A DNA stretch of 64,000 nucleotides. It comes from Chytriomyces cf. hyalinus JEL632. Lineage: Eukaryota > Chytridiomycota > Chytridiomycetes > Chytridiales > Chytriomycetaceae. Positions 5,734-62,052 of the stretch are shown here, piece after piece. The stretch is from NCBI GenBank assembly GCA_025435555.1, contig JAIWWG010000042.1, positions 223,922 through 287,921 of the forward strand, in the 5' to 3' direction. The translations under genes were made by a program, and so were the position numbers. Position 1 is the first letter of the stretch. Each line of letters opens with the position of its first letter. Below the pieces are notes generated by a model that had not been told where the DNA came from, ran no database searches, and saw only the letters and a program-made list of their open reading frames with translations.

Positions 5734-5816
5734 GGGCAGATGGCCGAGTTGGTCTAAGGCGTCACGTTAAGGCCGTGATCTAGTAATAGGCGTGGGTTCG
5801 AATCCCACTCTGCTCA
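5734..5816 (+). tRNA. tRNA-Leu (anticodon AAG)
   Basis: Class II tRNA with acceptor stem GGGCAGA/TCTGCTC, A box TGGCCGAGTTGGTCTAAGG, anticodon loop TTAAGGC, long variable arm and B box GGTTCGAATCC. No intron. A T-rich run follows the 3' end. The anticodon AAG (read as IAG) decodes CUU/CUC. Confidence 0.95.
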
Positions 5817-6575
5817 TTGCTCATTTCTCTTTTCATTGTTATGGCTGTCCAGCTGAAACGCGTTGCATTCGATCTTTTCTTGATTATTCTCTCCCATCAT
5901 AAGCGCACGTACAGACAAAGATATTTGTCAAAGAACACGTAGATTTATATGATGATTTTCTTGAAGTTTGCAGTTAATGTGCACTAGTTCATAAAATGGC
6001 TCGATTGCCTCCATCGTTGATAGAACCGAAACATGTGACGATTTGAGTTGCGATAAATTCCTCAAAAGATCGCTGGAAAACTCTCACAGAGAGAAAGACC
6101 GTACAAGATGAAGTGCTCCTTCTCATTCCCGAGGACTGCCTTTTTCTTTCTCAAACTTTTTTGAAGTGATGCCGGCAATGGATATTCTCCTACTGTAGAT
6201 AGTCTGCTGTTCCTTTTCTGATGTTCTGTGGATTGAAGAGTAAAGTGAAAAAATAAATACCTCATGTTAAACAAAACGACAAGTCACCGTCGTCAAGATA
6301 AAAAAAATACTGTGTTCCGCGATCTTACGATTTTGCCGGCATGTGCAGGTGAGGTTCTGACAGCAAATGGGTGGCGCCAGATTATGACTCCCTCTGATTT
6401 TGCCAGGATACACAGAGCGCCTCATGCTCGACAGGATATGGATTCAATGGCAAGTGAAAACAAATGACGGAGCTCTTGTGCTTGGAATTGATTTGGGCAA
6501 CTATAACATGCGCCTTTGTGTTGTCCTAAAATCGTGACAGAATTGCCAACTGGGTATGAATAACCCATTGCAAAT
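5817..6575. other. Intergenic region with a possible HSP70-like fragment
   Basis: No gene with supportable structure. Near 6476-6533 on the plus strand one frame reads LVLGIDLGNYNMRLCVV before a stop. This resembles the first phosphate-binding motif of HSP70/HSP110 proteins (GIDLGTTNS), but no further HSP70 motif follows. It may be a gene relic next to the transposon at 6581 or a chance match. Confidence 0.3.
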
Positions 6576-6580
6576 CTTAA

Positions 6581-7250
6581 GCCCCGTTTGGCAACGAAAA
6601 TTTTCCATTTTTGCCGTACACCAGATACTGCTCCAAATCAGGATCTGAACAAAACAGTATTTGCAAATACCGACTTGGCCAAATACTGATTTGAAGACTC
6701 CAAATTCTATTTTGCGTCCAAATCAGTATTTGCAAATACAGGCGTTTTTCAAGTTGAAATAGATCATGACTTGACCCCAAATACTGCCAAAATCCAAATA
6801 CGGCTTTTTCCTGTATCTGACGTTTACGAGTTGTTTTTTTTTTTTTTTTTTTTTTTTTTTTTGAAGAGTCAGTTTATTGTCAGTCTCGCACGACAAATAA
6901 CAGGGCGCAAAAGTAGCAGTGAAACAGGGACGCAAAAAATTGCTGTCTAGCAGCGGAGAGCGGGGGATTAAAATATCAAAGTCCAGCGCAATGGGAAAAG
7001 TCAAACACTAGGGGAAATTTCAGCTTCCCAGAGCTGGCACAGATACTCCATGGAAGCGGCATCGGTAGTTGTTCCCAAAAACATAGCCGCTCGATGAGGC
7101 TGCGAGAAAATTTCACCTTACTTGAAAGTTAAGCTGAGATCAAGCCACTTGCAAGTTTCACCGGTGCAGTATTTGCAGATACTGTTTTGCCGCAGCACTT
7201 CGTAATTTGCAAAAAATCGTCCAAATCATACTTTTATTGCCAAACGGGGC
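6581..7250. mobile_element. 670-bp MITE-like DNA transposon with 14-bp TIRs
   Basis: The element begins GCCCCGTTTGGCAA at 6581 and ends with the exact reverse complement at 7237-7250. It is flanked by a 5-bp direct repeat CTTAA (6576-6580 and 7251-7255), read as the target-site duplication. A TTAA duplication with a one-base offset is an alternative. Near both ends are repeated motifs such as CAGTATTTGCAAATAC and CAGTATTTGCAGATAC, as expected of transposase-binding subterminal repeats. There is no transposase ORF, so it is non-autonomous. A T29 run lies inside at 6834-6862. The superfamily (hAT-like or piggyBac-like) cannot be settled from one copy. Confidence 0.85.
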
Positions 7251-7830
7251 CTTAATTCTATTTTATTGCAAATCTCGGAATATTCAAGATTGACATAACA
7301 ACCAAGCAACGTTGATCTCTTGTCTCTATTCCTATTTAAGCTCACGTCTTTAGCTGAATTAAGACCAGTTAATCCATAATCTCCTCTTCCTCTCTACAAA
7401 CCTGAAAAACCTTCCTCATTGATCAAGAGCCACTCCGCAGCCCTTGACCAATTCTGTATCAGAACAATAAGAATACAAGAACTCTATGTTACTCTCTATG
7501 TTACTGCCACCGTGCTCAAGAAATGTGGTTCAAACTTATGACAGCATGACATCTTAGATAACAAATATAAATACGAATGAAGCTTGTTCACAAGATATCA
7601 TGACACATCTGATTGGCCATCTCACCGTGAAAGTTCTGTCGATAATGTCATGGGTTTGAGACCAAACATTGTGGTTTGGAATCAAATCAGTCACACACAC
7701 ACACGAGTAACAACTGAGGAAACAGAATTTTGGAGTCAACCACAGTGAATATATATGGAAATGAATATAAGTGTATGTCAACACCAAACGCAATGTCCAA
7801 AACAGTGACAGAGGCAAACAAAAAAATTAA
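7251..7830. other. Intergenic region
   Basis: AT-rich sequence with a short (CA)n run near 7690. I see no supported gene, RNA or repeat here. Confidence 0.5.
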
Positions 7831-7948
7831 GAGGGATGGATGCCGGGCAGTGAGCCGAATCACACGGTAGTGCCCCTTTTAGTCGACGGCTGCAGCCAGC
7901 TCCCAGGATAAGGCCCGCATCTCCGAGTTTTACACCGTGTAATCCCTC
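7831..7948. ncRNA. Candidate structured RNA, unidentified
   Basis: A GC-rich island in AT-rich DNA with three sets of complementary arms. GAGGGAT (7831-7837) pairs with ATCCCTC (7942-7948). ACACGGT (7862-7868) pairs with ACCGTGT (7934-7940). GATGC-C-GGGC (7839-7848) pairs with GCCCGCATC (7913-7921) with one bulged C. The second and third sets cross, which would make a pseudoknot if both form. A GGCTGCAGCC palindrome lies in the loop. It resembles no RNA family I can name with confidence, and transcription is not shown. It lies 75 bp upstream of a tRNA-Leu gene. Confidence 0.3.
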
Positions 7949-8023
7949 AGTCAATCATCTATTGTTTTGCATGAGGGTCTGGCGTCGTGAAATAATAGTT
8001 TTCTTTAAGTACACTGTTCACGT

Positions 8024-8106
8024 GGACAGATGGCCGAGCTGGTCTAAGGCGCCACACTCAAGTTGTGGTCTAGTAATAGGCGTGGGTTCGAATCCCACTC
8101 TGTTCA
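8024..8106 (+). tRNA. tRNA-Leu (anticodon CAA), copy 1
   Basis: Class II tRNA with acceptor stem GGACAGA/TCTGTTC, anticodon loop CTCAAGT, long variable arm and B box GGTTCGAATCC. No intron interrupts the anticodon arm, although CAA leucine tRNAs in many eukaryotes carry one. Nearly identical to the copies at 23143 and 61970. Confidence 0.95.
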
Positions 8107-8269
8107 TCTTTTGTCCGAAGACAAGTATTTTTTTTTGCTTGCGCAAGCTGCCTGTCTGTTTCTTTTGACCGGGAATGAATACTTTCATCGAGGTTCTTTT
8201 TGATCTGCGCTGTCTGTGAAAGTCAAAGATTCTCGAGTGACACTGCCATTTTCATTAAACACAGCCAAA

Positions 8270-9499
8270 ATGAATGCAGATGGCATAAGCGCCTCAAAAA
8301 AACAACCTGTGCGAGGCATCCTGAAAGGCTACTCTCACAGTCTCTCGGACTATGCCGCCGATTCGTCCGCCAACAAGTATAAATCCCGACTGGAAACCTT
8401 GTTTTCTCAAGAAACTGACCCGCACCCCTCTAATTTTTTTTCACACAAACCAGACTCAAGTGGGATGGTAAGCCGTTTTTTTTTGCAATTGCCGCCGCTC
8501 CATTCTCTTCGTGTGATTTCTTATTGCGGTAACTATGGGGTAACGCAGAGGACAACCTGATGATGACGGAGGCGCAAAAAAACAGCACCATGAAAATTGA
8601 CGAGCCAAAGACACCGTATATCCACTACAATGCATTAACGGACGAAATTGTCGGACATTCAGGTGATTGACTGACTCGACTGATAGAGGGGCAACTGTTT
8701 TTCTTGCCGCGATCTTACAAAAACGGGTTGTGTTTTTTTTAAAGGTGCGATTCCGCCTATGGAACTCAGCAGTGCATTAGATGACGTCAAGGATGCGCAA
8801 CAAAAGATGTCTGCTGGTGGAAGCGCAAGTTCCTCTATGCTGACGAGCGATACAAGTGGAACCAGGTCAACAGGCGGTCCTCATTTTACAGGAAGCATCT
8901 CTGGTGGTGGTGCAAGCGGAGATTGGGATGATGATGAAGGTGACTCTGGGATGAAAGAGATGACGGCAGAAGGTGCGGAAATGCTTTCTTTTTTTTTTTT
9001 TTTTTTTTTTTTTTTTGGTTTTGAGCGTTTATTGACTTGTTGTTGTTTGGAGCAGAGCGGGAAAAGCATGAAAAGTTTGAAAGGATGCGGAGTCAGCATT
9101 ACGACATGAAGCTCAAGCTTGCTGCTGCGCGTAAACAGATTCAAGACGAAGAAAGCGGTGAGGACGCCGATAATGACGATGGGAATCTAGATGCTAGCAG
9201 TGATGGTGACGATGATGATGGTAACGTGGCTGTCGAGCGTCGGAGAATTCATTGAATGCCTCATGTATTCAGACTATGAAGACGAATCTGATGATGAAGA
9301 CGGCGCGCAAGCCCCGATTTCGAAATCAGAATTTGGGACTGAATCGCTGCGTTCGATGGCCGGGCGAAATCCAAACCATTTGAAAGAGGACGAACCAGCA
9401 TCCATGAGCAGTAATAGTAACAATGGTGGATCCGCGGACAGGAGCGAGAGCATTAGCAGCAAGAAGGCGCGAGGGAACCAGATGGACATGTCTGGGTGA
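8270..9499 (+). CDS. GLC8: Protein phosphatase 1 inhibitor-2 (IPP-2/Glc8 family)
   Basis: Five exons: 8270-8467, 8551-8662, 8745-8972, 9056-9220 and 9273-9499, all joining in frame to about 309 residues. Family motifs occur in order. [10 protein letters not shown] near the N-terminus matches the PP1-docking KGILK motif. DEPKTPY carries the conserved Thr-Pro site phosphorylated by GSK3-type kinases. [18 protein letters not shown] matches the helix that enters the PP1 active site. The rest is acidic and Ser-rich, longer than the usual 200 residues. The protein is expected to bind PP1 catalytic subunit in cytosol and nucleus and control its activity or maturation. Intron 3 holds a T28 run (8989-9016). 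Confidence 0.9.
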
Positions 9500-9661
9500 T
9501 GCACTGGCGCAATGTTGTCTGAATCTTGAACGTTGCGAAACGCCAGAATATAACTTGCATGATGAGTCATATACTTAAATAAAACAAAGTAATCGGCGAC
9601 TAAAAACACGAGGACCAATCAGGAACAGAAGACAAGTGAAGAAAAAAGGGGCGTTTCGAAC

Positions 9662-14563
<4,902 letters not shown>

Positions 14564-14870
14564 GCGCCCGATTGCATCGAGTCGCGACCATTGCCTCGTC
14601 TTCTCCCAGCATGCACAGGATTTCACGCTTCTCAAGGCGCCGTCTTCTGTCTTGGGTCGGTTGTTTTTATTTCAGTTCTGGCTGTTTGTTTCCCGGTTTT
14701 TCCCCTTTTACTTTTACTAGAGCTTAATGGGAGCCTGAATGTACGTCATATGATGACTCCATACCAAAACACCAAAAATAAATTAACGAGTAAATAATAT
14801 TTATGAGACCATGGCGAGCACGGTTAGAATTTGAACATGGTTGACGAAGGCGTAAAATATTGTTGAATAA
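14564..14870. other. Intergenic region between the nucleotidyltransferase and verprolin genes
   Basis: Probable 3' UTR and promoter DNA. An AATAAA at about 14777 is a plausible poly(A) signal for the upstream gene. No other feature seen. Confidence 0.5.
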
Positions 14871-15903: not shown

Positions 15904-16144
15904 AATGTGACTCGCGCAAGTCTGATCTCGATTTCTTGGAATGGTGGCCCTGTTATTTTCGTGTGCCCTTTTGTTGCTCAATTCTGCACCTATAACGATG
16001 CTGAAACTGTTTGGCATTAAAGTCCTGCTTTAAGCCACCTTGCAATCGAAACAGAATCCATCAAAGGTTAAAATAATCACGAGCTTTATTTGTCGCCACA
16101 GACATTGAGAGAGGAGGCAAGCAAAAAGTCCAACACCCCAAAAC

Positions 16145-19674: not shown

Positions 19675-19725
19675 TTGCTTCACAACCGATTTTAACTAAA
19701 TATTTACATAAATATATCCCAAGCT

Positions 19726-23142: not shown

Positions 23143-23225
23143 GGACAGATGGCCGAGTTGGTCTAAGGCGCCACACTCAAGTTGTGGTCTAGTAATAGGC
23201 GTGGGTTCGAATCCCACTCTGTTCA
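23143..23225 (+). tRNA. tRNA-Leu (anticodon CAA), copy 2
   Basis: Acceptor stem GGACAGA/TCTGTTC, anticodon loop CTCAAGT, long variable arm, B box GGTTCGAATCC and no intron. It differs from copy 1 by one base in the D-loop region (GAGTTGG versus GAGCTGG). Confidence 0.95.
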
Positions 23226-23662
23226 CATACTTTTCCTCCTTCAGCTGTTCTCTGGTCAATTTTTGCAACCCGTTCCCAAACACCCTCCACCAAAGTCTCC
23301 CTTTGAGGTGATGGTAAAACACTCTCCAACTCTCTCTGCCCTGCAGATCCTGATGATGTGTCTGTCTGCTTGTCTTTCTGTACAGCGGTGTTAAAATAAC
23401 TTCGAGATGAAGCGTCAAGCGGATGAATATTGTTTATTTGTGAAAGCGTTCTCTCATGCTAGTGAAGTTTCTTACTTCACTCGCTTGCTGTGCATCATCT
23501 CAGAAAATGCCGATAGTATTTCCATCGACCGCTTGGTGACAGAATCATACAGTATTAGAAGGGCAGGCAGAGGATGTCAGAGTTCGCAGAATCAGAGACA
23601 TTGGAATGGGAGGAGTTGGGCTTTCATCATTTGGTTTATAAAAATAGAACAGGATGCTCGGC
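23226..23662. other. Intergenic region between tRNA-Leu and U2
   Basis: No supported gene. The ORF that crosses this stretch continues through the U2 snRNA gene on the opposite strand and is taken as fortuitous. Confidence 0.5.
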
Positions 23663-23830
23663 GTCAGCTGGTGGCAGTGAAAGACCAGCGACACGCGTTT
23701 CCCAGGGTCTGTGCAAGCACAGATGACCGAGAACAGTGGTCCAAAAATAATTGTGATAATGGATTTAGTTATCACACTAAATAGAACAGATACTACACTT
23801 GATCTTAGCCAATATAGGCTTGAGATGAAT
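23663..23830 (-). ncRNA. U2 spliceosomal snRNA
   Basis: Read on the minus strand from 23830, the RNA contains TTGGCTAAGATCAAGTGTAG, the conserved U2 stem I/II core. GTAGTA (complement of 23791-23796) pairs with the intron branch site. The Sm site ATTATTTTTGGA lies at about 23740-23752. A perfect hairpin TCTGTGC-TT-GCACAGA follows (23708-23723). The last hairpin, with stem GCTGGT/ACCAGC and a loop containing TTTCACTGCC, is in the place of stem-loop IV, where U2B'' binds. The 5' end (ATTCATCTCAAGCC) departs from the usual ATCGCTTCTCGGCC. The 3' end is set at the end of the last stem and may be off by a few bases. Confidence 0.92.
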
Positions 23831-24521: not shown

Positions 24522-24603
24522 TGAGCAAAGTGGGGTTTGAACCCACGCATCCGGAGATACCAGGGCCTAAACCTGGCGCCTTAGACCACTCGGCCATTTG
24601 CCC
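24522..24603 (-). tRNA. tRNA-Leu (anticodon UAG)
   Basis: On the minus strand: acceptor stem GGGCAAA/TTTGCTC, A box TGGCCGAGTGGTCTAAGG, anticodon loop TTTAGGC, variable arm and B box GGTTCAAACCC. Decodes CUA and, by wobble, CUG. An LTR-like repeat begins at its 5' flank. Confidence 0.95.
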
Positions 24604-25210
24604 GTTGGGTAAATAATAGAGAATAGTTGGACTGCTGGAACTGGCTTCTTGACTATTCAGAGGCTGGACTTGGACTGCTTTCGTGCAGGAGAGAGATAGA
24701 GAGTAGTAAATGAGTTGTGGAGAGACTGCTCTTTATTGGAGAAAAGGGGCAGGCTTAAATAGGAGTTTCTGGTAACTGATCACAAAGTGAAACAATTGGA
24801 AAATGGTTTGGAGATTTTAGAAGGAAGAGAATTTTGGTGTGTTGGAATTGGTTCAAAATAACGAGCGGGTTTCTGAAACGTGGGAAATTTTGTTGTTGAG
24901 AACTTTTTGCTGCGCATTCTTTGAAGTACGTCAACGTAATCCAGTCGATTACGTAACAGTAAATGTGGAGAATAGGTCACAACTATTCTTGACTATTTAG
25001 GACTTGATTTGGGACTGCAAAGGCAGGAGAGTTAAGAAGGAGTTATGGAGAGACTGGAGTTTATTGTAAGAGAGCGACGCGCTTAAATGGCAAGTAAGGT
25101 TTTCCAAAAATAAGAATGATGTGAGAGAAATTTGTGGCGTTTGAAGAGAGTGGATGAAGCCAAAAATACGCACGCTCGAAGTGAAGTCCATTTTTCAATA
25201 AATAAATATT
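24604..25210 (-). repeat. Two diverged tandem copies of an LTR-like repeat beside tRNA-Leu
   Basis: Two related blocks of about 350 bp lie head to tail (about 24604-24957 and 24958-25210). Shared landmarks in the same order are AGAATAG, CTTGACTATT, a GGACTTG/GGGACTGC stretch, GCAGGAGAG, TGGAGAGACTG, a TTTATTG and CTTAAAT. On the minus strand each copy reads as TATTTAAG or ATTTAAG, then AATAAA, then a CT-rich part, the layout of a retrotransposon LTR promoter and R region. No coding sequence lies between them. The insertion point directly at the 5' side of a tRNA recalls tRNA-targeted retroelements. Identity between copies is partial, so boundaries are approximate. Confidence 0.5.
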
Positions 25211-27474: not shown

Positions 27475-28886
27475 ATGAACGACCTGCCCAACGAAGTCCT
27501 GATTCAAGTCTTTCTGCAGCTCGACCCGTTCAAGATCGCAAAAGTATCGGCGAGTCTGCCGCTCCTTAACACCAAATTGACACGCCGTCAATTCTCGAAC
27601 CTGATTGGCCTTGTTCACATTGGACACACCCACAGCGACTTGACGAGGATAAAACGGGATGTTTTCTGTTTCGTTACGCCAGCAAGTTCTGGGGTGGCTT
27701 TCTTGACAGACGTGCAAGAACATGTGGACAATTCATTGAAATCCGGAGTATGTTCATATGAAGCTGCAGTATTCACGCAGTATCCCGCCAACACTCTGAA
27801 TACCACGTCACTGAATGCCGCGTTGAATCCACTCGAAGAAGTCAGGCCTTCTTTGCGCATGTCAGAGCGGCATCTTTCTCATAACAAGCTCACTGGGAGA
27901 TTTCCAAACTACATCGCATCGTTTACAAACCTCACCCACCTTCGTTTGAATGAGAATAATCTCAGTGGTCCCTTTCCAACTGAAATGGGAGGGTTAAAAA
28001 ACTTGCGCGTCCTGTCACTTGGCAGAAACCAATTCTCTGGGGTGCTTCCTGATTCCATAAACGGTTTTGTCGCGTGGACAGAGCTGGACGAGCTGGATCT
28101 CAGCCAGAACTCGTTCGTTGGCAGAATTCCCAATTCAATCATGTCGCTCGCAACTCTCCGTCATCTGTTGCTGCAATGCAACAAGCTTAGCGGTCAAATA
28201 CCGGCGAAATTCCACCAAGAATTTGCATGCTATCTAATATCCGCACACTCGAATTAAACAACAACAGCCTTGTTGGCCCGTTGCATCCGGACAATGGAGC
28301 TTTGACCAAGTTGAATGCATTGGACCTCAGCCACAATCAGTTGACTGGTACAGTGCCTGAAAGTATTTTGCTGCGGGGTTTGAACACGCTGAAATTGAAT
28401 CACAATCAACTGTCAGGTACACTACCGAAATTTGGAGAATGGATTTATATTGAAACCCTGCGCCTGGATGACAATCAATTCTCTGGTCACCTGTCAACGG
28501 ATGTGCGAAACCTGTTCTATCTCAAAACTATGAATTTCAGCCACGATCAGTTATCCTTCCACCTCCCTCCGTCCAGTTTCTGCTTGAAATCCATCGAAAG
28601 CATGGGTCTGGGCAACAACAGTTTCGACGGTACCCTTCCTACGGAGTTCAAATCCATGCAACGACTCAAGATGCTCGATCTGAGCAACAACCAGTTCAAT
28701 GGGTTTATTCCCGCGGTTCTTGCTAGTTGTAGCAAGTTGGAGCTGCTGGATTTGAGTGGAGGTCATTTTGCAGGGGATTTGCCGGAACGTTTTCGAACGC
28801 AGTCGGCGGACAAGCAGGCTGTGCCGTTTCGTTGGGTGAAGGAAATTGAATCTCGGCGGCTGGATGGTGCTGGCATATCTCAATAA
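27475..28886 (+). pseudogene. F-box / plant-type LRR protein, frameshifted (array copy 1)
   Basis: The N-terminus MNDLPNEVLIQVFLQLDPFK is an F-box motif, followed by a linker (DVFCFVTPASSGVAFL) shared with the two neighbouring copies. Then come LRRs of the plant-specific type (LxxNxLsGxfPxxxgxLxxLxxL), e.g. LRLNENNLSGPFPTEMGGLK. The first frame stops at 28254. The LRRs resume at once in another frame from about 28216 (RTLELNNNSLVGPL...) to a stop at 28884. At the break two similar 11-bp units, GGTCAAATACC and GGCGAAATTCC, stand side by side; removing one would restore one frame. No intron of normal size fits. If expressed, the first frame gives an F-box with about five LRRs. Confidence 0.7.
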
Positions 28887-29142
28887 AAAAATTTCTAATG
28901 TTTCAACACGGCAGACTTGGAAGATGTCTGGATGAAACTTTTCGGCGCGGTGGCACAGTAAATAAACACCAGCATCATTTGTTTAACAACTCAGAATGAC
29001 TGGCACGTGAAACTGCCTGACAAACTGGCTGTGGTTGTTCAATGGTCGGAGTTCGTGTTTGGCACATACGCGATCAGTGCGACTTGTGAAGCAACCCAAC
29101 ATTTTGAAATTATTTACATAAACTAAAATATATACCAAAGGC

Positions 29143-31259
29143 ATGAACGACCTCCCCTTCGAAGTGCTGGTGCAGATCTTTCTGCAGCTCGATCCGTTCA
29201 AGATGGCAAAGTATCGTCGAGTCAGCCACTTCTTCAACAATGCGTTGGCAGCGCATCACTTCTCGAACCTGATTGGCCTCGCTCATGTTGGACACACCAA
29301 CGGAGGAGTGGAAGTCTTCTGTTTCGTCACGCCTGAAACGTTTGGGGAAGCTTTCTTGACGAAAGCGCAAAACAACTTGGACAATGCATATACTACTGAG
29401 TATAGAGCTCGAAACTTCATCAAGTATCCAGTCAATAGTGTGAAGGTTCTTCCAATCAACCCTCTCAAGACCATCAATGAGGTTTCCCTGTTGGAATTCT
29501 TGAAAGGCCACATCTTGTCTGGCCCGCTTCCGCGCGCTCTCGGCAATATGTCGAAAGTTTCGAATAATGTGGACTTGAAAGGCAATTACGTGACCGGCCC
29601 TCTCCCGTCGGAATTGGGAAACCTAGTTCATTTAAAGAAACTGGATTTGAGTGACACACTTCTTGACGGCACGATACCCAGCAGTTTCGGGAACTTGATC
29701 AACTTGGAGGTGCTGGACATGTCCAATGCCAGCTTGACTGGCTGCATTCCTGAAAGTTTGGTGGACTTGGTGAATTTGGTCAAGTTGAATCTGCAGAGGA
29801 ACAAGCTTTCGGGCCAGTTGCCAGATATGTTTGGAGGGATGACCAAGCTGCAAACTTTGTCATTGGACAGAAACCATCTGGACGGGCCAATACCGAAATC
29901 TATTGGTCGATGCATGCAACTGACGACGCTGACGTGCCAATTGAATAAATTTTCAAGTCCTATACCTGAATCGATTTTCCAACTGCCATTGCTTCGGAGC
30001 GCAAATTTCGGAAGCAACCTGATTCTCTCCAAAAGTCCTCCAACTTGCGACGCGAGCGTCGAAGTCGTCGGTATGGACGCCATATTTGATGACTGTGATC
30101 CTGGAATAACTCTCTGTTTCCATCAGCATCGATCGATGTCAAGTCACTCAATGTCGCGTCGAATCCAGTCAAAGAGGGCCATGCTTCGCTGCTTCTGTCA
30201 AATCTGGATCTTTCGGATAACCAGCTCTCTGGGATACTTCCAAACTACATCACATCACTGACAAGCCTCCGGTACCTTTATCTGCATGAAAACAATCTTA
30301 CTGGTCCGTTACCAACTGAAATCGCAGAGTTGTCATGTTTGTGGACCCTGAATCTTGGCAGCAATGAAATCTCTGGCACGATTCCGGATTCAATCATTTT
30401 GCTTGCAAATCTCCGTCATCTTTCGCTGCAACACAACAGACTGAGTGGTCGTTTGCCGACGGAAATTGGACTTTTGGCTTCTCTTGGTGTTTTGGACCTC
30501 AGTCACAACCACTTAAGTGATGAAATTCCAGATTCGTTTGGAAGGCTAAGGTATCTGTACACTTTGGATCTCAGTCACAACCAGCTCACTGGCGAGATTC
30601 CTCCGGGCGTTTTCATGCAACGTGGTATTGTCACGCTTCATTTGAACAACAACAACCTTGTGGGTCAGTTGCACCAAGGTATGCGACCTTTGATCCATTT
30701 AGTCGCACTGGACCTCAGCCACAATCATTTGACTGGCCCCGTGCCGTGCTTGACTGCCCCCTTTCCCACAAGCTTTATGCCGCCGCGTTTGAAAACGCTG
30801 AAACTGAGTCATAATCAACTGTCGGGTCCGCTTCCGAAATTTGGAAAGTGGTGTTCAATTGAAACGCTGCACCTGGATCACAATCAGTTCTCTGGTCCCC
30901 TGCCAACGGACACGCAAGACCTGAGGAATCTGAAAAGTTTGAATTTCAGCCACAACGAGTTGTCAGGCCCTATTCTGGCAACCATAATGCACGGGAAATC
31001 CATCGAAAGCTTGAATCTAAGCAACAATTCCTTCCACGGTAACTTGCCCATGTTATGGTGCGGACGCGGGTCACGAATCAAGACGCTGGATTTAAGCAAT
31101 AATCAGTTGAGCGGGGTTGTTCACAAAAATTATTTCGATTTTCGTCAGTTGGAGCTGCTGGATCTACGCGGGAACCGATTTGAAGAGGGTCTGGTTTCGA
31201 TCCTGGTCGCCGGAAAGCATGCCGGGCCGTTTATTAGGGAAAAGGAAAACGAATCTTAA
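29143..31259 (+). CDS. F-box / plant-type LRR protein, intact copy (array copy 2)
   Basis: The F-box MNDLPFEVLVQIFLQLDPFK is followed by a linker (EVFCFVTPETFGEAFL) and more than 15 plant-type LRRs, such as LDLSDTLLDGTIPSSFGNLI and LDLSHNQLTGEIPPGVFM. An apparent frame change at 30070 is resolved by a 56-nt intron (30071-30126, GTATGG...TTCCATCAG) that joins the halves in frame, giving about 686 residues. F-box proteins link substrates to SCF ubiquitin ligases through Skp1, and the LRRs would bind the substrate. No signal peptide or membrane segment is visible, unlike plant receptor proteins with the same LRR type. The linker sequence recurs after the intron (VKSLNVASNPVKEG), hinting at internal duplication. 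Confidence 0.75.
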
Positions 31260-53900: not shown

Positions 53901-53948
53901 CTTCGAAAGAGACTGTGTTTCGATCCGAGTCGTGGAGGTGTTATTCAT
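50901..53948 (-). CDS. PHD-finger and AT-hook protein, probable chromatin factor
   Basis: Three main exons from ATG 53948 (MNNTSTTRIETQSLSKG). The first 900 residues are disordered, rich in Ser, Pro and Ala, with a basic patch (GKRAKRGKRQIWAWVPV). A PHD-type zinc finger follows: CHSCKTPGKLLDCTTCLLSY, HFTCVEEGLEK and YICNRCQF, a Cys4-His-Cys3 pattern. After the next intron is an AT-hook, DRPKGRPGRPPKSQKLK, and a helical C-terminus (KAMSLERYKRLLELERNAHE). PHD fingers read histone tails and AT-hooks bind the minor groove of AT-rich DNA, so a nuclear chromatin role is likely. I do not recognise the exact orthologue. Confidence 0.75.
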
Positions 53949-54416
53949 GCTGAGCTGCGGGAGGTGGTAATTTTGCGGTGATTATTGATGGTGCATACAC
54001 AACACAACAAGGGGCAAAACTGTTCACCATCGATTCGTTGAGTGGGATGATTGGCGGGGAGGTTGGTGGTGTTTTGATTGCACAAAGTGTTTTTGCGGAG
54101 ACAAGATGCAGACCCTCACAGCAGCCGTCCAAGCTTAGAACGACGCTTTCGATTCAAGGATTGATGCTGATGCAATGGATACGATAAGATAAGAGTGCGG
54201 TTCGTCCCGCGTGTGATGGAGTGAGGCTGAAGAAACTCTCGAGAAAGAGCCACCAAGGAACGGAATTCGCCAAATGCTCGAAGGCCAATGACGCTGCAGG
54301 TGAGGCAGGGTCTGACCGGGCCTGGAATGTTTGAGCCGAGCGGGGGGAAGCAGGAAAGCTGGAAAGCTGCCAAGTTTTGCTTTCTTGTGTCTGTTTATTT
54401 TACTTTGAACACACTA
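53949..54416. other. Divergent intergenic region
   Basis: Probable promoters of the PHD gene and the Ser/Thr-rich gene. At 54417 an ATG opens a short frame (MSSLPVTSWFKQ) ending at a GTAAGT donor, which could be a first exon, but no normal-sized intron joins it in frame to the next exon. Confidence 0.4.
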
Positions 54417-54544
54417 TGTCATCATTGCCTGTGACGAGTTGGTTCAAGCAGGTAAGTATTTAAAACCAATGGCAGTGGTGTTTTGATGGAACGAATGGAA
54501 GAGTTGCAATTTACGCTCAAACATCCAACGCTGTGACCTCCTGC

Positions 54545-57002
54545 ATGGCGTCCACTTTGACCCGGAGCGGCGATCACGCTGGCAATACCCAACTAAGCAA
54601 TAACAATATCGTCATGCGAGAGAACAGCAGTCGTGGGCCCAGGAGTTGGTCCAACAAAATCAAAAGCCTTGTCGCGCCTGGACCGAATCAAAACGCGTCT
54701 CAAGAGACATTTTCAGAAGATAGACTCGGAGAAAGGAAAAGAAGCGCCAGTGAAAGCATTTCAAAGTGGGGATACAAGTTTAATCTGGGCAAAAAGAGCC
54801 AGGACCTGGGTTCCCAGCTTGAGACTGAAGATGTGCATCCCGTGTATGCTTTGGTGCATGCTTCGGTAAATACCAAACCAAAGATGATACCCAGAGTAAC
54901 TCAGTCTCTGTTGCGAGATTTGGTAGCACTGAATTTATTATTGCTCGAAGCAGGAAGTGCAGCCAGCCCGCGCGTTTGCCAAAGCAGAAGACGCAGCAAC
55001 CGACACTCTGGAGTCCAATGCTTTGAAAGATGCGATTGAAGATGCTTTAAATGCTGCGAACAATGTCAGCGACATGGCTTCCTCTGGTCAAGAAAACATG
55101 ATGTCCCCTTCAAAACTGCCTTCAAATCGCGATAGCCTGAACTCGGCTCTCAAACTGAACAATACTCCGACAAAAACTCTAAATCGGTTCCCACTAAGAT
55201 CCAAGCTGACCACGCAACCCAGCACTGAGCAACTGTCGGTGCACAAAAGCGCGATCCGACATCAGAGGGCGGAGCATGATTCCAAATATGGTCGCAGCAG
55301 TCATGCCAAAGTGTCATTCGACCTTACTTGCGACTTCAAAGAAGCGATGGACCAACATGCCACGGTAGAATCAAGTCCCTCGCTTGTTGGAACTAGAACA
55401 AACGATTCTGTTTCAAGAAAAACAAGCACAACACACGCCCGCTCAACCGCAAACTGCCCTGCGTCACCCCATGTCGAATCTTCAAATGTCGCCCACAACT
55501 CCAAATAGGACTAAAACACTTCGCAGTCGACCGCCATCGCGAATCCCAGTTCCCGTGCATTCGGCATGTGCAACATCTCAAACGCCAAACTCGAAATCTT
55601 TCAACTCCAAAGAAAAATCTTTGAAAGGCGTATCGCTTGTTAGGTTGTACTGGAGTCCATCCAGACTTCCAGTGAGCACGCGCACAACATCGATAAGAAC
55701 AGGCCAATCCGCCATGGACAAAATCCGTTCCCGGTACAACCTGCTCTGTCACATTTACAACCTATCACAGTGAAGAATCATCCGTTGGAACGACCAGTCG
55801 ACAGACAACTCTTTTCGGACTCCTCGCAACTTGCAAATGGTTTAGAATCAGACACATCTGGAACTGGCAATGCTATGCGGTTAGTTTCGAGTGACGCATT
55901 TGAATGCATGCTTGGGCCAGCAGAAGCTCGGAATGAGAAGCCAAGGGAACTTGTGTATATGATAGCCGCGCAGCCTTCCTCACACCCGAGCCATTTGGAC
56001 GCGCCACTACATCTCCCAACCTCAACCCAAGATACAGACCAACATTCTTGAAACAAACAAGGCTCGAATAGGCTTCTTAATGGCTGCGGCAACTCTTTAG
56101 CTGGTGCAGATTCAATTCAAACCATTTCAGCCAACATTTTCAAAGTACTCGAGCCATTCCTCAAAGATTCTGAGAGGGAGAAACAAGCAGCTGCTCAACT
56201 TCTTTCGGCACAACTGAAGGATGGGCTTGCACAGTTCGAGTTATGCGGAATCAAGTGCAGTCATACATCGGCCATGGTTCAAACTATCGAAAGCGGGACT
56301 AGAAACGCGTTGAATACGTCTACCTCAGCGATAAAGAGGCAGGGTTTGGATCTTTCGTCATCTCAGGAGAAGCTCCGACCGACTCTAAAATTCAGACTCG
56401 CCCCAGGCATTCGCTACGCGTCTGAACCAGAATCAGTGTCGGGGTCGTCATGCGGGAGGGTATCCGTAGCTGGATGCAGTTGTAACGGCAGTGAGGAAAC
56501 ATGCACAGAAAACAGCGAGGAAGGGTATCTAGGACCAAAACGCCAAAGTGATGCTCGATTGGAGGAAGCCAAGATGACATCTAAACTGGCGCTGAGCCGA
56601 TATTACTCGAGCCTCGAAGCGGCGAATGCGCAAGAACAGAAGCTGGCAGACAATGCCGAAACTGCCTCCTCAACTGACACTCTGAATAAGATGGGATGGA
56701 ATGTATCTTCTTTTCAAACGTCAGCATCCGCAATTGGTCGGTACATGGAAGGGTACCCTATTGCCAAGTCGCTGGCACCTGAGTCTGGGTCCTCAGCAAC
56801 TCGAAGAAAACGGGTTGGAAGCAAAAAAAGGGAATCCAACGCGACTAACATCGACAAGGGTCCACTGCTGGGATCCGACACACTGGATGTCGTGCGAGCG
56901 AGGGCTGCTTCAACAAGATCGCTTGCGTCAAATCAGTCCATGATTGCGAGTGTGGGCACGTTGCGTTCGAGGTTAACGTCTGTAGAGCCTCAAAGCGAGT
57001 AG
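54545..57002 (+). CDS. Ser/Thr-rich protein of unknown function, multi-exon model uncertain
   Basis: A chain of overlapping open frames that can be joined by plausible introns: MASTLTRSGDHAGNTQ... to HPVYALVHAS (donor about 54865), then EVQPARAFAKAEDAA... to about 55372, then KQAQHTPAQPQTAL... to SLKG (donor about 55630), then SSEHAHNIDKNRPIRHG and onward. In that last frame a TGA stands at 56049, with good coding on both sides (MRLVSSDAFECMLGPAEARN before, SIQTISANIFKVLEPFLKDS after). An intron from a GTATAT near 55957 to CGAATAG near 56072 would skip it. The product has no recognisable domain; it is rich in Ser, Thr and Asn with a short coiled coil near 56580-56660. It may be a real gene or one beginning to decay. 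Confidence 0.45.
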
Positions 57003-57134
57003 GTACATTCGCTATGCGAGCAGCCAGTGAATGTAGTTTAAGTAGGTCACATGCATTCATGTTAAGGATCACCAAGCACTAAGCATGTTTGAATAATCTG
57101 ATCTGTGGGACAATTGAAGCGTATCACAAAATAA

Positions 57135-59882
57135 ATGCGGGAGGAAGAAGAACCGCTGCTTCTCGATCAGAACACAGCTCAGTCTGCGCATCCGCAACCA
57201 CGCAGAGTAGCCTATGCAGCAACGGGGCCTCAACCGGCAACGGCTCGGCGGCTCGGTTCGCTCGGCATGGCTGTGAACACTGTGGGACCAGTGCGGAGCA
57301 TGAACATGTCGCGTGAGTCTTTGCACTGTACATCTATCGATTATAGCGCCGAACTTGATGCTTAGCATCGTTGGTAGTTGCACATATCTGTTGCTCACAT
57401 ATGCTTGTCTCCAGCTGTGCATGCAAGCAGCAATATCAACCACCCAAGCTCCAACAACCTCACTGGCTCCTCAGATTGGACCACCGATATCAGTGCAGCT
57501 CAATCCTTCAGTCGCGACATGTCGTTTTCAACAAACCCGAATCAGAATCTTCTCGGCGCAACTCCTCGAGCGTCCATCTTCAACTCGAACTCAGCCCAGC
57601 ACTCAAACTCTTCATCGAACTCGAAATCGCAACATCGTCGGGCAATAACCCCGCCGAGCAACTTGCATCATGCAGGTTTAAATATCAACAAGGGAAGGGA
57701 CAGCAACATGACCACCAGCTGTGCTCGAATTCTCTCTTCTTCGTATTCTTCACTATCCTCTCAGCATAGCATGGTCGTCATGCAGTCCTCTAGGCACTTC
57801 AATTCTCTGTCCCCCCGTGCAGCCGGTTCCACCGCGTCAGCTGATTCGCTCGGATTGGAACGGAATCCAATCTCATCGAAAAGCAGCATTGGGTTCAGTC
57901 CACATATCCTCGCTCAATCTGACGACCAAATATTCACTTCGTCGCATTCACACTCGGATTCAACGGCAAAAGATACCGCAAGTGAAGCGCACCCTTCTGC
58001 GTTTGAGGATTCAACAAGCAACCATGGCAATGATACGTCAAGTGGAAGCCATAGTTGGGATTTTGGGCCCGATCCTTTGCCTGCTAGAATTCCGTCTGCC
58101 GAGAGTGAGCAAGATACTCGGAAGCAAAAAAGTCTCGCTGAGCAAGGAAACCCGCCCGCAGAGACTGCCAGCAATTCCCGTCTACCGCATTTAGATGACT
58201 CTCCAGCAATAGGCAGAATATTGAACGATGATTTCCGAGAGCCTGCATCACCACGTCCGGTGCCTTTTATCGACTTGTCAAAGTTGGAACCCGAGGGAAA
58301 CTTGTTCTTGGACACTCCTCGAAGCAGATCAGCCAGCTCAAACAATCGCGCCAGAAACAAAAGCGGTGGCAGCAGTGCGACAGGAACGATTCGGAGAAGG
58401 TTTCGCACAAGCGACCATCACGGCAATCCAGACAGTATCATGGACGACACTGAGGACGAAGATCGCGAATCTAATCAACCATTTAGCCATCGAAATCATC
58501 TAGACTTTAACATCATCTCTGACTACCTGACCTCGGTCATGATCAATTCGAGCGCAGACTTGTACGACTCGTTTCATTCCAACCAGGCTGAGACAGCACC
58601 AGCAAACACTTCATGGCGCCATCGAAGCAGCCTTTCTGGTCGTAATTTGGATCGCGGCGAATACTATTATCAGCAAAAATCTATGCGTTTCATGTTTCAT
58701 AGCGACGTGACAGAGACTGTGCGGAGCCCATTGTTTGAAACACTTCCATTGGCCTCGTATGAATCCTCGATAGCTGAGATCCTACAAGCTGGAACATTTT
58801 GGCTGGACGTGTGCAATCCAACTTCGGAAGAAATGAACACACTTACTCGGCTCTTCAAAATTCATCCTTTGTCAGCCGAAGATATCATGACTGAGGAGAC
58901 GCGAGAAAAATGCGAGGCGTTCCCGAATTATTATTTTATAGCCATTCGCACATTCGATAGCGATCAATTCAGCGCCACATACATGCAGCCCATTAACGTT
59001 TATATTATCGTGTTCCGCGAGTGTGTTTTATCGGTATGTCTGGGTGCGAGTATTCGTTGTCAAAAGTCTGACTTTATATTTCAGTTTCATTCGCAACCCA
59101 TCGTCCATCTGAACAACGTACTGAATCGTGTGGAGCAGTTGAAATTGTATGGTCTGAATATCTCTCCCGATTGGCTCAATTATGCTCTCATTGATGACAT
59201 AACCGATGGATTTATGCCATCTTTGAGACACATTGAATTGGAAGTTGATGCAATCGATGAGCTTGTGCTGATTCTGAAGGAGAGAGAGCAGGTATCATAT
59301 CGTGTCTTGCTTATTACCTGTCGCGATGTTCCTCAATTGCAGGTATTGCCATTACTCAGAGTGATATGCTACGACGCATTGGCCATGCCCGTAAACGTGT
59401 GATGGTGTTACTTCGACTGCTCATCACCAAGGCGGATGTGATCAAAGCAGTAATCAAGCGATGCGGGCAGAGACTTGCGCCTGAAAGTGAAACAACTCTC
59501 TACTTGGGAGACATTCAAGGTAGGACTTGACCGGTTGCTGCAAACGTGAACTAAGCCAACCCGTTTAGACCATATCATCACAATGGTCCAGACACTCAAC
59601 CACTGCGACAAAACACTGACACGATCCCATAGCAACTACTTGGCCCAAATCTCGATCGAAATCACACAAGCATCCAACCGCACTAACGACGTTGTTCTCA
59701 AAATGACTGCACTCGCAAGTATCCTTGTTCCGCTCAACATTATCACGGGATTATGGGGGATGAATGTGAGAGTTCCAGGCGAAGAGAGTGAAGGTTTGGC
59801 TTGGTTTTTTGTTGTTTTGGGGCTTATGGTGGTGGTTGCGATTGTTTCGTTCATGGTTGTGCGGAGACATAATATAGTTTGA
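57135..59882 (+). CDS. CorA-type magnesium transporter (Alr1/Mnr2-like)
   Basis: Five exons (57135-57312, 57415-59033, 59085-59291, 59360-59519, 59569-59882) join in frame to about 825 residues. The first 430 residues are Ser/Asn-rich and cytosolic; EEEEPLLLDQN near the start is an acidic dileucine-type motif, as on vacuolar proteins. The CorA domain follows: WLDVCNPTSEEMNTLTRLF, IHPLSAEDIMTEETREKCE, FPNYYFIAIRTF and FMPSLRHIELEVDAIDELVL. Near the C-terminus ITGLWGMNV holds the invariant GMN selectivity motif at the end of the first membrane helix, followed by a second helix (AWFFVVLGLMVVVAIVSFMV). It should form a pentameric Mg2+ channel; the long N-terminus fits the fungal Alr1/Mnr2 branch. 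Confidence 0.9.
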
Positions 59883-60014
59883 ACAGGCAACATGTTGTTT
59901 AGTGGGAATGAATTCAATGTGTGCACAGATTCAAGTGCAAAGTGCAAGTGGTCGAGCAAGGAGCGTGAAGAGGTGCAAACATTCTGGTATAGTTTGTATT
60001 AAGAGTATTGCATC

Positions 60015-60096
60015 GGGGAAATGGCCGAGTGGTCCAAGGCGCTACGTTCAGGTCGTAGTCCAGCAATGGGCGTGGGTTCGAACCCCACTTTCCTCA
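60015..60096 (+). tRNA. tRNA-Leu (anticodon CAG)
   Basis: Acceptor stem GGGGAAA/TTTCCTC, A box TGGCCGAGTGGTCCAAGG, anticodon loop TTCAGGT, long variable arm and B box GGTTCGAACCC. No intron. Decodes CUG. Confidence 0.95.
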
Positions 60097-60299
60097 CCCT
60101 TTTCGTTATCATGCACAGGCTTGTGCATATTGAACTATGTTATTCTTTTTTTTTTTTCCCACTATTCTGCTATGCTGGGCTGATAAGACGATTTCTAATA
60201 GATAGAGCTCGTACCTCACTGTTCATACTAGAGGACATGGAGCAAGATGCGCCTTGACTTCCAAATGTCTCATGAAAAGTGGCTGGCGTCAGAACGTGA

Positions 60300-60445
60300 C
60301 ACATTCTCGCATGTGAGTTCAATGAAGAAAGCATAAAGCCGCACGTAAAGGGACTTTATTCTTGGTCGATTAATATCGATCAAGCGCTTCCCTGAGTATT
60401 GATAAGCTAGTTTGAGTTGCCGAAGGTGCATCTCGATTTAAATGA
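60300..60445 (-). repeat. Partial inverted copy of the 225-bp tRNA-flanking repeat
   Basis: On the minus strand this reads ATGCACCTTCGG..., CTCAGGGAAGCG..., TTAATCGACCAAGAATAAAG and CTTCATTGAAC in the order found in the plus-strand copies at 61215 and 62172. Similarity is patchy, so ends are approximate. Confidence 0.55.
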
Positions 60446-60509
60446 AGTAATAAGTTTGACCGAGCAATAGGTATTATAATTAATAATGTTTGAATTTTAA
60501 TTTATTATA

Positions 60510-60591
60510 GCGTAGTTGGCCGAGTGGTCTAAGGCGTCGGTCTTAAGATCCGATATGGTAACATGCGTGGGTTCAAACCCCACACTACGCA
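60510..60591 (+). tRNA. tRNA-Leu (anticodon UAA)
   Basis: Acceptor stem GCGTAGT/ACTACGC, A box TGGCCGAGTGGTCTAAGG, anticodon loop CTTAAGA, variable arm and B box GGTTCAAACCC. The last anticodon-stem pair is T-T. Decodes UUA/UUG. Confidence 0.93.
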
Positions 60592-61214
60592 TCGTTTTTA
60601 CACCACCGTCAAACAGGTGGAAGATGTTGTTGGTCTTCAGCGAATCACAACGGGCTGAAAGCAAAGTACGTAACGGCAAATACAGTGAAACGCGAGGTCA
60701 TGAACAAAGAACAGCTTGATTTGAGCACAGAGCAAAGATAAATCTCATCAGCTTTTTGCTTGCCAAGTATGCACCTTTCATGGCATGTTTCTGTCACTTT
60801 GCATTTTCCCAATCTATTTTGAGACGTTAATTTTGGTGTCGTGTCGTCCAATTGCCCATGAGTAGCACTTAGAACAGATCTCTTATCTCTAGATTGGTAC
60901 GTGTGGCGTACAAGAGGTGCCACAGTTGATATTGAATGAGAGTTTATTTAGAGAGTTCTAAGTACAGATGTCTGTCGTGTAAACACTGATAATAAAGGAT
61001 AGGCCGTAGCATTTATCGATCCTAAACAAGCATTTGTGTCAATAAAAGACAGGCAAATGTGAATAATGCATCTTGCGCATTATTTTGCTGATCACGCTTG
61101 AGACGGCATTCATTTACACTGGCTGCGCATTCAGGAGCAGTTCTTCCTCTGCAACTGATTCAACATTATTATGTGCACCTTTATAGCATTTTGACTGAAC
61201 AGAAACAGCGTCTT
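60592..61214. other. Intergenic region
   Basis: No supported gene or repeat; the minus-strand ORF at 60645-60923 has no recognisable feature. Confidence 0.4.
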
Positions 61215-61435
61215 GTCATGATTCATGGATCAAATTCGTCAAAGATACACCTTCGGTGACTCATCTAAGTGATAGCCTATGAATGCTCAGGGAGGCAGGC
61301 ATTGCACAAACATTGTTTCAATCTCTGAAACATGTGCCGTTTTGATCGCCGACCAAGAATAAAGTCTCGGAACACCTGACTTTATACTTCCTTTACTGAA
61401 CTTAAACTTGAGAGAGCGTGTCTAGATCTATACTA
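61215..61435 (+). repeat. 225-bp dispersed repeat, copy A
   Basis: Roughly 80% similar by eye to 62172-62400. Shared blocks include GTCATGATTCATGGATCAA, AGATACACCTTC, AGCCTATGAA, CGACCAAGAATAAAGTCT, GAACACCTGACTTTATACTT and CCTTTA(C/T)TGAAC. It has no coding frame. An AATAAA sits in each copy. Confidence 0.8.
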
Positions 61436-61969
61436 TGAGAAGGTGCTCAAGGCGGATGCTGGTGCCCCTGTACACAGCCACAATCATTACAAATGCGCAT
61501 TTGCATGCTTGCAGGTCGAATGGTGATAGTATTTTGGCCTCCAGTCCAATGTCTGTAATGTACGTGTTGCGCTAGTGCAACGCATCCTGCACAACGCGAA
61601 GTCTTACCAAGAGCCAGAAGCCCTTTCCAACAAAGTTCGAATCGCAAACATTTAACTTGTCGCTTTTTTGTGCATCCCAATCCGTGGAAGCCTGCCGACA
61701 AGTCAAAACATAAGTAGATAGCTCGCGCTTTTTGTTCACCTCATGGGATTTTATTTTCCGCACCCAACAAAATGACGGCATTAAAGATGAATGTGACATA
61801 ATCGTCCCCCAACTCACCACTATGCACCGTGTTGCATGCGATGTGGCCAGAATGTTTCAATCACATTCCTAACCACTGCCAGACCTTTCTTGCTCCCGGC
61901 AGTATTGGCATTCAAGTTAAATCTCGTGGTCAAGGACCGACCGATTCAATAAGGTGACGTGACAAAAGG
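61436..61969. other. Intergenic region between repeat copy A and tRNA-Leu
   Basis: No supported gene; the minus-strand ORFs at 61447-61820 overlap in two frames and lack recognisable motifs. Confidence 0.4.
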
Positions 61970-62052
61970 TGAACAGAGTGGGATTCGAACCCACGCCTAT
62001 TACTAGACCACAACTTGAGTGTGGCGCCTTAGACCAACTCGGCCATCTGTCC
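61970..62052 (-). tRNA. tRNA-Leu (anticodon CAA), copy 3
   Basis: Minus-strand copy with acceptor stem GGACAGA/TCTGTTC, anticodon loop CTCAAGT and B box GGTTCGAATCC, no intron; matches copy 2 across the tRNA body. It lies between two direct copies of the 225-bp repeat. Confidence 0.95.

What the first reader, a model, noticed from the sequence alone, without database searches (positions are those of the whole stretch)
5734..62052. All seven tRNA genes in the window are leucine tRNAs and cover five anticodons
The seven genes at 5734, 8024, 23143, 24522, 60015, 60510 and 61970 carry anticodons AAG, CAA, CAA, UAG, CAG, UAA and CAA. These are five Leu isoacceptors, and no tRNA for another amino acid was seen. 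With about 20 amino acids to choose from, seven of seven for one is very unlikely by chance. The three CAA copies are near-identical and could come from recent duplication. The others differ in acceptor stems and look old. Either Leu tRNA genes cluster here, or they diversified locally by duplication and anticodon change.
Basis: partly seen in the sequence, partly recalled or inferred. Interest (0 to 1): 0.75.

Follow-up and report, generated by a model that had tools for sequence, protein, structure and literature searches.

The report
Clustered leucine tRNA genes in eukaryote
In this unnamed eukaryote, probably a fungus, one chromosomal region holds leucine tRNA genes of five anticodon kinds and no other tRNA that could be found, an unusually complete case of like tRNA genes lying near each other.

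Summary
In detail: the window has seven tRNA genes, all leucine, with five anticodons. It is not chance. The contig (C180, 288 kb) holds nine catalogued tRNAs, all Leu, within 65 kb; in a partial genome catalogue of 269 tRNA hits this is the longest same-amino-acid run (9; shuffled maximum 5). The 18 non-AAG Leu genes found (8 CAA, 7 CAG, 2 UAG, 1 UAA) lie on five contigs, C180, C176, C64, C19, C169; AAG (18) is widespread. C176 and C64 are collinear with C180 as a diverged second copy, with six Leu genes in the same order, so that part of the cluster predates the two copies. Same-amino-acid neighbours are common even without Leu (25 of 58 against 4.4 expected), but 23 of those 25 share one anticodon; the isoacceptor mixture is mainly a Leu feature, weakly shared by Ser. 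Best reading: an old locus grown by short-range single-gene duplication from already ancient anticodon families; only AAG/CAA look locally remoulded. Separately, Ty3-like LTR elements lie 8-12 bp upstream of tRNAs of many kinds, including Leu genes of the second copy.

The parts
5734..5816 (+). tRNA-Leu(AAG) gene
   Evidence: (56.0 bits); aligned; counterpart at C176:291277
8024..8106 (+). tRNA-Leu(CAA) gene, one D-loop base unlike the other two CAA copies of the window
   Evidence: (56.1 bits); counterpart at C64:48139
23143..23225 (+). tRNA-Leu(CAA) gene
   Evidence: (57.7 bits); counterpart at C64:26622
24522..24603 (-). tRNA-Leu(UAG) gene; one of two UAG matches in the genome scans
   Evidence: (58.7 bits); counterpart at C64:25260
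60015..60096 (+). tRNA-Leu(CAG) gene
   Evidence: (55.7 bits)
60510..60591 (+). tRNA-Leu(UAA) gene; the only UAA match in the genome scans
   Evidence: (59.9 bits)
61970..62052 (-). tRNA-Leu(CAA) gene
   Evidence: (57.7 bits)
23652..23830 (-). U2 spliceosomal RNA gene lying between Leu(CAA) and Leu(UAG)
   Evidence: 105.3 bits; a U2 match lies between the same two genes on C64
8024..57015 (.). stretch with a collinear diverged counterpart on C64 (reverse): blocks of 84-92% identity, the shortest (376 columns) 80%; window 26.8-42.6 kb has no counterpart there
1..5556 (.). stretch with a collinear diverged counterpart on C176:283-290.7 kb, 85-89% identity, continuing left outside the window
61214..61429 (.). 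dispersed repeat beside Leu(CAA) 61970, possibly an old solo LTR (not shown)
62171..62396 (.). second copy of the same repeat, upstream of Leu(CAA) 61970
24666..24958 (.). dispersed repeat upstream of Leu(UAG); similar DNA lies upstream of Leu(CAA) at C64:48139 and at C176:245.3 kb

Best explanation
This is a real leucine-tRNA domain: an old locus, present in two diverged copies in the assembly, where Leu tRNA genes of five anticodon families have accumulated and been kept. Shown: only Leu tRNAs were found in the window and the 80 kb to its left; the 18 catalogued non-AAG Leu genes are all on C180, on its second copy (C176, C64) or on two further contigs (C19, partly homologous to C176; C169, no link shown); six genes keep order and strand in both copies; same-amino-acid proximity is common across the genome. 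Inferred: the locus grew by repeated short-range duplication, with inversions, of single tRNA genes rather than of long segments, because paralogues share little more than the gene and a few flanking bases and sit kilobases apart on both strands; flanks of old duplicates have decayed while the genes stayed alike through selection or gene conversion. Also inferred: UAG, CAG and UAA are old families that came to lie together, while AAG and CAA exchanged or inherited one body locally.
For: Catalogue and shuffles: neighbours at most 20 kb apart are same-amino-acid in 39 of 77 cases (shuffle mean 5.65, maximum 17 in 5000 shuffles); without Leu 25 of 58 (mean 4.4, maximum 13), 23 of these 25 with the same anticodon. 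Different-anticodon neighbours of one amino acid: 10 against 2.6, a value reached in 2 of 5000 shuffles. After collapsing runs of one anticodon and dropping C176, C64, C19 and C169, different-anticodon Leu neighbours within 20 kb are 5 against 0.18 expected, maximum 3 in 20000 shuffles. 47 same-anticodon neighbour pairs up to 100 kb apart have a median spacing of 14.7 kb and 28 of 47 lie on one strand, unlike tandem arrays. Non-allelic flanks align mostly only from about -30 to +110 around the gene. Order CAA-, AAG-, AAG+, CAA+, CAA+, UAG- is the same on C180 and on C176 followed by reversed C64 (that C64 follows C176 is inferred from their match to C180); the copies differ at 9-19% of fourfold sites in five ORFs. 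AAG and CAA are 88% identical, the differences lying almost only in the anticodon arm and pair 3-70.
Against: The catalogue (269) is partial: it rests on exact consensus patterns; one listing of 121 matches was cut short and only partly refilled; by my reading Glu, His, Phe, Cys and Trp did not appear, though 16 hits stayed unassigned. Missing genes could break up runs outside the stretches scanned by ARAGORN. Other duplicated regions were not removed from the shuffles. Duplication events themselves were not observed. Two non-allelic flanks share more than stated above: AAG (C180:222972) and CAA (C180:285889) from -46, and UAG (C180:248443) and CAA (C64:48139) from -340, the latter through a dispersed repeat. 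The age of the anticodon families leans on six sequences recalled from memory. No related species could be compared. The distal CAG-UAA-CAA trio has no assembled counterpart on C64, and C176:229-249 kb (CAG, CAA) showed no collinear match in the part of C180 held (from 143.9 kb), so only part of the cluster is shown to predate the two copies.
Confidence: 0.6

Rival explanations
1. Local diversification: one Leu gene duplicated here and changed its anticodon repeatedly, giving all five isoacceptors.
For: AAG and CAA share nearly one body (88%), lie 1.3-2.4 kb apart in three places, and no CAA match lies outside C64, C176 and C180. AAG, CAA and CAG share a similar variable arm (by eye). Isoacceptor shifts are documented in eukaryotes (PMC3923123, abstract and passages).
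Against: UAA is 62-72% and UAG 72-78% identical to the other kinds; the seven loop bases of all five kinds equal those of human tRNA-Leu of the same anticodon (human sequences recalled).
Confidence: 0.15
2. Gathering kept by selection: the Leu genes stay together because a shared chromatin or Pol III domain, or joint dosage control, is useful.
For: The catalogued genes of four of the five Leu anticodon kinds lie in the domain, its second copy, C19 or C169; order of six genes kept in two copies that differ by 9-19% at fourfold sites.
Against: AAG, the commonest kind, is mostly elsewhere (14 of 18). Other amino acids show clustering of single anticodons, which duplication alone explains. No expression data.
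Confidence: 0.12
3. Retrotransposon-driven build-up: Ty3-like elements that integrate next to tRNA genes cause breaks and recombination between LTRs, which copy tRNA genes over short distances.
For: 15 of 41 and 10 of 40 matches of two LTR families end 8-12 bp upstream of a catalogued tRNA; the letters beside one Leu(CAA) gene on C64 read as three successive insertions. Dispersed repeats lie near some window Leu genes.
Against: The elements sit at tRNAs of many amino acids, so they do not explain Leu. Neither LTR family has a reported match on C180, which has the best cluster (only 40 of 56 and 40 of 53 candidates were scored there), nor a blastn match of 80 bp or more in the 144 kb of C180 held. 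The C64 insertion is absent from the matching place in the window, so the genes beside it were there before it.
Confidence: 0.1
4. Chance or assembly artefact.
For: The assembly is fragmented and holds diverged second copies, which inflates counts.
Against: Run of 9 never reached in 5000 shuffles; the signal stays with the C180 copy alone; the same six-gene order on independent contigs.
Confidence: 0.02

Closest known systems
Homogeneous tDNA clusters as defined in 'Genomic organization of eukaryotic tRNAs' (PMC2888827; passages seen)
   Same: Neighbouring tRNA genes charge the same amino acid; reported there as mostly homogeneous pairs in Tetrahymena, Monosiga and drosophilids.
   Different: That definition needs spacing under 1000 nt; on C180 only CAG-UAA (413 nt between) meets it, the others being 1.3-35 kb apart. 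Five anticodons of one amino acid in one place is not described in the passages seen.
tRNA turnover, concerted evolution and isoacceptor remolding (PMC4981973, PMC3923123; passages seen)
   Same: Local and non-local tRNA copies, near-identical paralogues, anticodon changes within one amino acid.
   Different: Those works used related species; here only one genome was available, so remolding of AAG/CAA is inferred from body similarity.
Ty3 / Tj1 / DGLT-A targeting of Pol III genes (PMC8632968, PMC4600332, PMC5006619; passages seen)
   Same: Ty3/gypsy-type elements; Tj1 inserts 5-11 bp upstream of mature tRNA ends and has a 5-bp target duplication, much like the 8-12 positions and 5-bp duplications seen here.
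   Different: Another host; both LTR orientations occur relative to the tRNA, whereas Tj1 insertions were in one orientation. Targeting is read from positions in one assembly, not from new insertions. It is a side finding, not the cause of the Leu identity.
Centromeric tRNA clusters of fission yeasts (PMC10085805; passages seen)
   Same: Fungal tRNA clusters with conserved synteny; the figure legend names Leu(CAA) and Leu(AAG) among them.
   Different: Those clusters mix amino acids and lie at centromeres; this region has ordinary protein genes between the tRNAs.

Membership tests
Homogeneous tDNA cluster (PMC2888827) | All tRNA genes of the cluster charge one amino acid | tested here: met
   only Leu found in the window and the 80 kb to its left
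Homogeneous tDNA cluster (PMC2888827) | Neighbours less than 1000 nt apart | tested here: not met
   Only CAG 60015-60096 and UAA 60510-60591 meet it
Tandem tRNA array | Repeat units with shared flanks in head-to-tail order | tested here: not met
   Non-allelic flanks mostly unalignable, both strands used; none of the 12 tandem-repeat rows overlaps a tRNA gene
Isoacceptor remolding of AAG and CAA | Body closer to another anticodon kind than to the same kind in relatives | tested here: inconclusive
   AAG-CAA 88% here, but human CAA (recalled) is the nearest human body to CAA at 76.5%; no relatives available
Ty3/gypsy elements targeting Pol III genes | Integration within a narrow window upstream of tRNA genes | tested here: met
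   15 of 41 and 10 of 40 LTR matches end 8-12 bp upstream of catalogued tRNAs; 11 and 10 more lie 4.5-7.5 kb upstream; the other 15 and 20 have no catalogued tRNA in these places
Ty3/gypsy elements targeting Pol III genes | 5-bp target duplication, LTRs beginning TG and ending CA | tested here: met
   C19: AGCCT on both sides; C64: CGAAA four times. At the C176 CAG gene the two sides agree in only four bases
Ty3/gypsy elements targeting Pol III genes | Integrase of Ty3/gypsy type | tested here: met
   Pfam rve, Integrase_H2C2 and SH3_Tf2-1 in the C19 element; in the C64 fragment only SH3_Tf2-1
Chromovirus | Chromodomain at the integrase C-terminus | tested here: inconclusive
   Chromodomain-like by eye; no Pfam chromodomain at E 0.01 in the two fragments scanned

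The most novel reading that the evidence does not exclude
tRNA genes in this genome spread as roughly 100-bp units over about 5-25 kb, on either strand and without their flanks, and so build isotype domains; the point a few bases upstream of the gene is where Ty3-like integration recurs, so integration and repair at that point may be the engine. The Leu domain would be the most complete product, with every gene found of four isoacceptor kinds in one region and its second copy.
Probability: 0.15. Interest if true: 0.65.

Novelty: new variant of a known kind. Interest (0 to 1): 0.42.

Why it matters
tRNA gene order is usually thought of as turning over fast. A locus that gathers isoacceptor kinds of one amino acid and keeps its order across two diverged copies would be a tractable case for how tRNA families duplicate, convert one another and stay together. 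The side finding, LTR elements a few bases upstream of many tRNA genes, would extend a behaviour known from yeasts and Dictyostelium to this host.

Tried and rejected
Considered and rejected: (1) missed intron-bearing tRNAs of other amino acids in the window: none with introns allowed. (2) Recent tandem or segmental duplication of the CAA genes: non-allelic flanks mostly do not align. (3) Leu-specific targeting by the LTR elements: they sit at Gly, Val, Ser, Asn, Pro, Lys, Arg, Ile and Leu genes alike. (4) That only Leu clusters: Lys, Ser and Gly runs exist too. My first statement that isoacceptor mixing is unique to Leu (note) was weakened when one search added Ser(AGA) genes next to Ser(GCT) on C237 and C209. 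(5) A chytrid origin is only a guess from recalled gene content; not tested.

Limits: one search found 121 matches but listed only the first. One search scored 63 of 1887 candidates; searches scored 40 of 56 and 40 of 53. The reversed-pattern controls gave 0 to 3 matches per search. Two tRNA groups in the catalogue (U643, U684; 16 genes) were not assigned an amino acid, and Unk-in (2 matches) is uncertain. Anticodons of catalogue entries were read by eye. Rows left out of the catalogue by eye as not tRNA, without folding them: 2, 8 of the listed rows, 3, 3; one row was a duplicate of the window's Leu(UAA), and Leu rows were taken once. In one search the printed label '5.2-6.5kb' is wrong: the script counted 4.5-7.5 kb; tRNA 5' ends there were estimated from pattern offsets.
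Full report
Check of the observation. ARAGORN, ARAGORN with introns allowed and Rfam agree on seven tRNA genes in the window, all leucine: AAG, CAA, CAA, UAG, CAG, UAA, CAA. The coordinates agree with the finding within two bases. All score 55.7-59.9 bits and, by eye, each is followed within about 25 bases by a run of at least four T, as expected of Pol III genes. The window is eukaryotic: it has a U2 snRNA gene and protein genes with PPR, F-box/LRR, SNF2/RING, RAI16-like, PHD, CorA, short-chain dehydrogenase and WD40 domains.

Setting. The window is C180:223922-287921 of a 37.8-Mb, 242-contig assembly, and its right edge is the contig end. Left of the window the cluster continues with CAA and AAG (C180:220604-223055); ARAGORN found no other tRNA in the 80 kb to the left.

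Genome-wide scan. Since the RF00005 search scored only 63 of 1887 candidates, I searched consensus A-box/B-box patterns and assembled 269 tRNA hits (262). A Leu-specific pattern gives 36 genes: AAG 18 on 12 contigs, CAA 8 on C64, C176 and C180, CAG 7 on C19, C169, C176 and C180, UAG 2 on C64 and C180, UAA 1 on C180 (tally). A looser class-II pattern gave 55 matches: 35 Leu, 14 Ser(AGA), 5 Ser(CGA) and one non-tRNA, with no further Leu kind; the Leu match at C221:1291 is not among them. So 22 of 36 Leu genes, and 18 of 18 non-AAG ones, are on five contigs. These contigs hold four other catalogued matches: Arg(TCT) on C19 and on C176, and Val(AAC) and one uncertain match on C169.

Is it more than chance? 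Neighbours up to 20 kb apart charge the same amino acid in 39 of 77 cases (shuffle mean 5.65, maximum 17 in 5000 shuffles). Without Leu it is 25 of 58 (mean 4.4, maximum 13), so like-with-like is a property of the whole genome; 23 of those 25 share the anticodon. Different-anticodon neighbours of the same amino acid are 10 against 2.6 expected with Leu (reached in 2 of 5000 shuffles) and 2 against 1.7 without Leu, no excess. When runs of one anticodon are collapsed and C176, C64, C19 and C169 are dropped, Leu still has 5 such neighbours against 0.18 expected. Of 22 overlapping 64-kb spans with four or more catalogued tRNAs, nine are of one amino acid: eight Leu on C180 or C176 and one Ser on C167. 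Ser shows a weaker form of the mixture, with Ser(AGA) next to Ser(GCT) on C237, C1 and C209.

Two copies of the region. C64 (reverse) is collinear with window 8.0-57.0 kb, without a counterpart for window 26.8-42.6 kb, and C176:275-291 kb with C180:207.7 kb to window 5.6 kb; most blocks are 82-92% identical, the lowest 73%. Fourfold sites differ by 9-19% in five ORFs and the proteins are 84-98% identical, more than I would expect of ordinary alleles (recalled expectation), so these may be homoeologues or very diverged haplotypes. Six Leu genes keep order and strand in both copies, with a U2 gene between CAA and UAG in both; that C64 follows C176 is inferred from C180. C19:1.6-4.7 kb matches C176:229-232 kb at 93% and also carries a CAG gene beside it. 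The last trio of the window (CAG, UAA, CAA) has no assembled counterpart on C64, and C176:229-249 kb has no collinear match in the part of C180 held.

How old are the anticodon kinds? AAG and CAA differ almost only in the anticodon arm and one acceptor pair (88% identical), CAG is 78-81% like them, UAG 72-78% and UAA 62-72% like any. The seven loop bases of each kind equal those of human tRNA-Leu with the same anticodon, five of five; these human sequences and one yeast sequence were recalled, not fetched. This favours old families for UAG, CAG and UAA, while AAG/CAA may have been remoulded or converted here; against remolding, the nearest human body to CAA is human CAA (76.5%). Non-allelic genes of one kind share little beyond about 100 bp around the gene, against hundreds of bases of flank between the two copies of one locus, so the duplications look older than the split of the copies. 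Exceptions are an AAG/CAA pair alike from -46 and a UAG/CAA pair alike from -340 through a dispersed repeat.

LTR elements. In the second copy and on C19, LTR elements sit directly upstream of Leu genes. On C19 an element with two identical repeats of about 324 bp lies next to Leu(CAG), with the 5-bp duplication AGCCT beginning 3 bp from the gene. On C64 the five bases CGAAA occur four times, which I read as three stacked insertions beside Leu(CAA). Pfam finds integrase domains of Ty3/gypsy type in the C19 element. Genome searches with two LTRs gave 41 and 40 matches, 40 of 56 and 40 of 53 candidates being scored; 15 and 10 of these end 8-12 bp upstream of a catalogued tRNA of many amino acids, 11 and 10 more lie 4.5-7.5 kb upstream as a far LTR would, and 15 and 20 have no catalogued tRNA in these places. 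By my arithmetic from these counts, 81 matches and 269 genes in 37.8 Mb would put far less than one match in so narrow a window by chance. Tj1, Ty3 and DGLT-A behave in a similar way (passages in PMC4600332, PMC8632968, PMC5006619). Two searches for chytrid elements at tRNA genes (12 of 30 papers listed, 3 of 3) listed no paper whose title or abstract start describes this; I did not read those papers for it beyond the passages named. The elements do not explain why the genes are Leu, and neither LTR family has a reported match on C180.

Verdict. The best explanation is an old Leu locus grown by short-range single-gene duplication in a genome where like tRNAs tend to lie near each other, with ancient anticodon families brought or kept together. 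Known homogeneous clusters (passages in PMC2888827) are the nearest kind, but their spacing rule is not met. Other literature searches listed no paper whose title or abstract start describes a Leu domain of this sort. No comparison with related species was possible.

Noticed in passing
C19:9079-14582, C64:26.7-32.7 kb, C176:239.7-245.0 kb (L013/L014, L010, L016): LTR elements directly upstream of Leu tRNA genes (Ty3/gypsy type by Pfam on C19); two LTR families end 8-12 bp upstream of tRNAs of many amino acids genome-wide, with apparently three stacked insertions at one gene.
   Followed up: yes
C176/C64 against C180: Diverged second copy of the region (9-19% at fourfold sites): hybrid, ancient duplication or very diverged haplotypes.
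   Followed up: partly
C164:218-286 kb, C223:20-70 kb, C232:397-487 kb: The same order Gln(TTG), Met(CAT) and two unassigned tRNAs on three contigs, so some regions may exist in three copies.
   Followed up: no
23652-23830 (-); L028: U2 snRNA gene inside the Leu cluster scoring 105 bits against 130-143 for nine others in the genome; a diverged U2 kind, also on C64 (104.5).
   Followed up: no
C1:554852, C3:80333, C46:45936, C164:178638, C166:518776, C188:449453 against C38:65185, C112:290092: tRNAs read by eye as Thr(CGT) have a body very like those read as Arg(CCT): a possible change of amino-acid identity or a misread anticodon.
   Followed up: no
13971-14130: 53 AAC units; one reading frame gives a long glutamine run inside a 727-aa ORF, other frames asparagine or leucine runs.
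   Followed up: no
63497-63787: 69-bp tandem repeat close to the contig end.
   Followed up: no
27475-31259: Neighbouring ORFs with leucine-rich repeats; Pfam confirms LRR and an F-box-like start for the one scanned (29143-30258); the others look alike by eye, perhaps a local gene family.
   Followed up: no
C167:45-131 kb; C90:321-436 kb; C188:193-268 kb: Runs of Ser(CGA) x5, Lys(CTT) x6 and Lys(TTT) x4: single-anticodon clusters elsewhere in the genome.
   Followed up: partly
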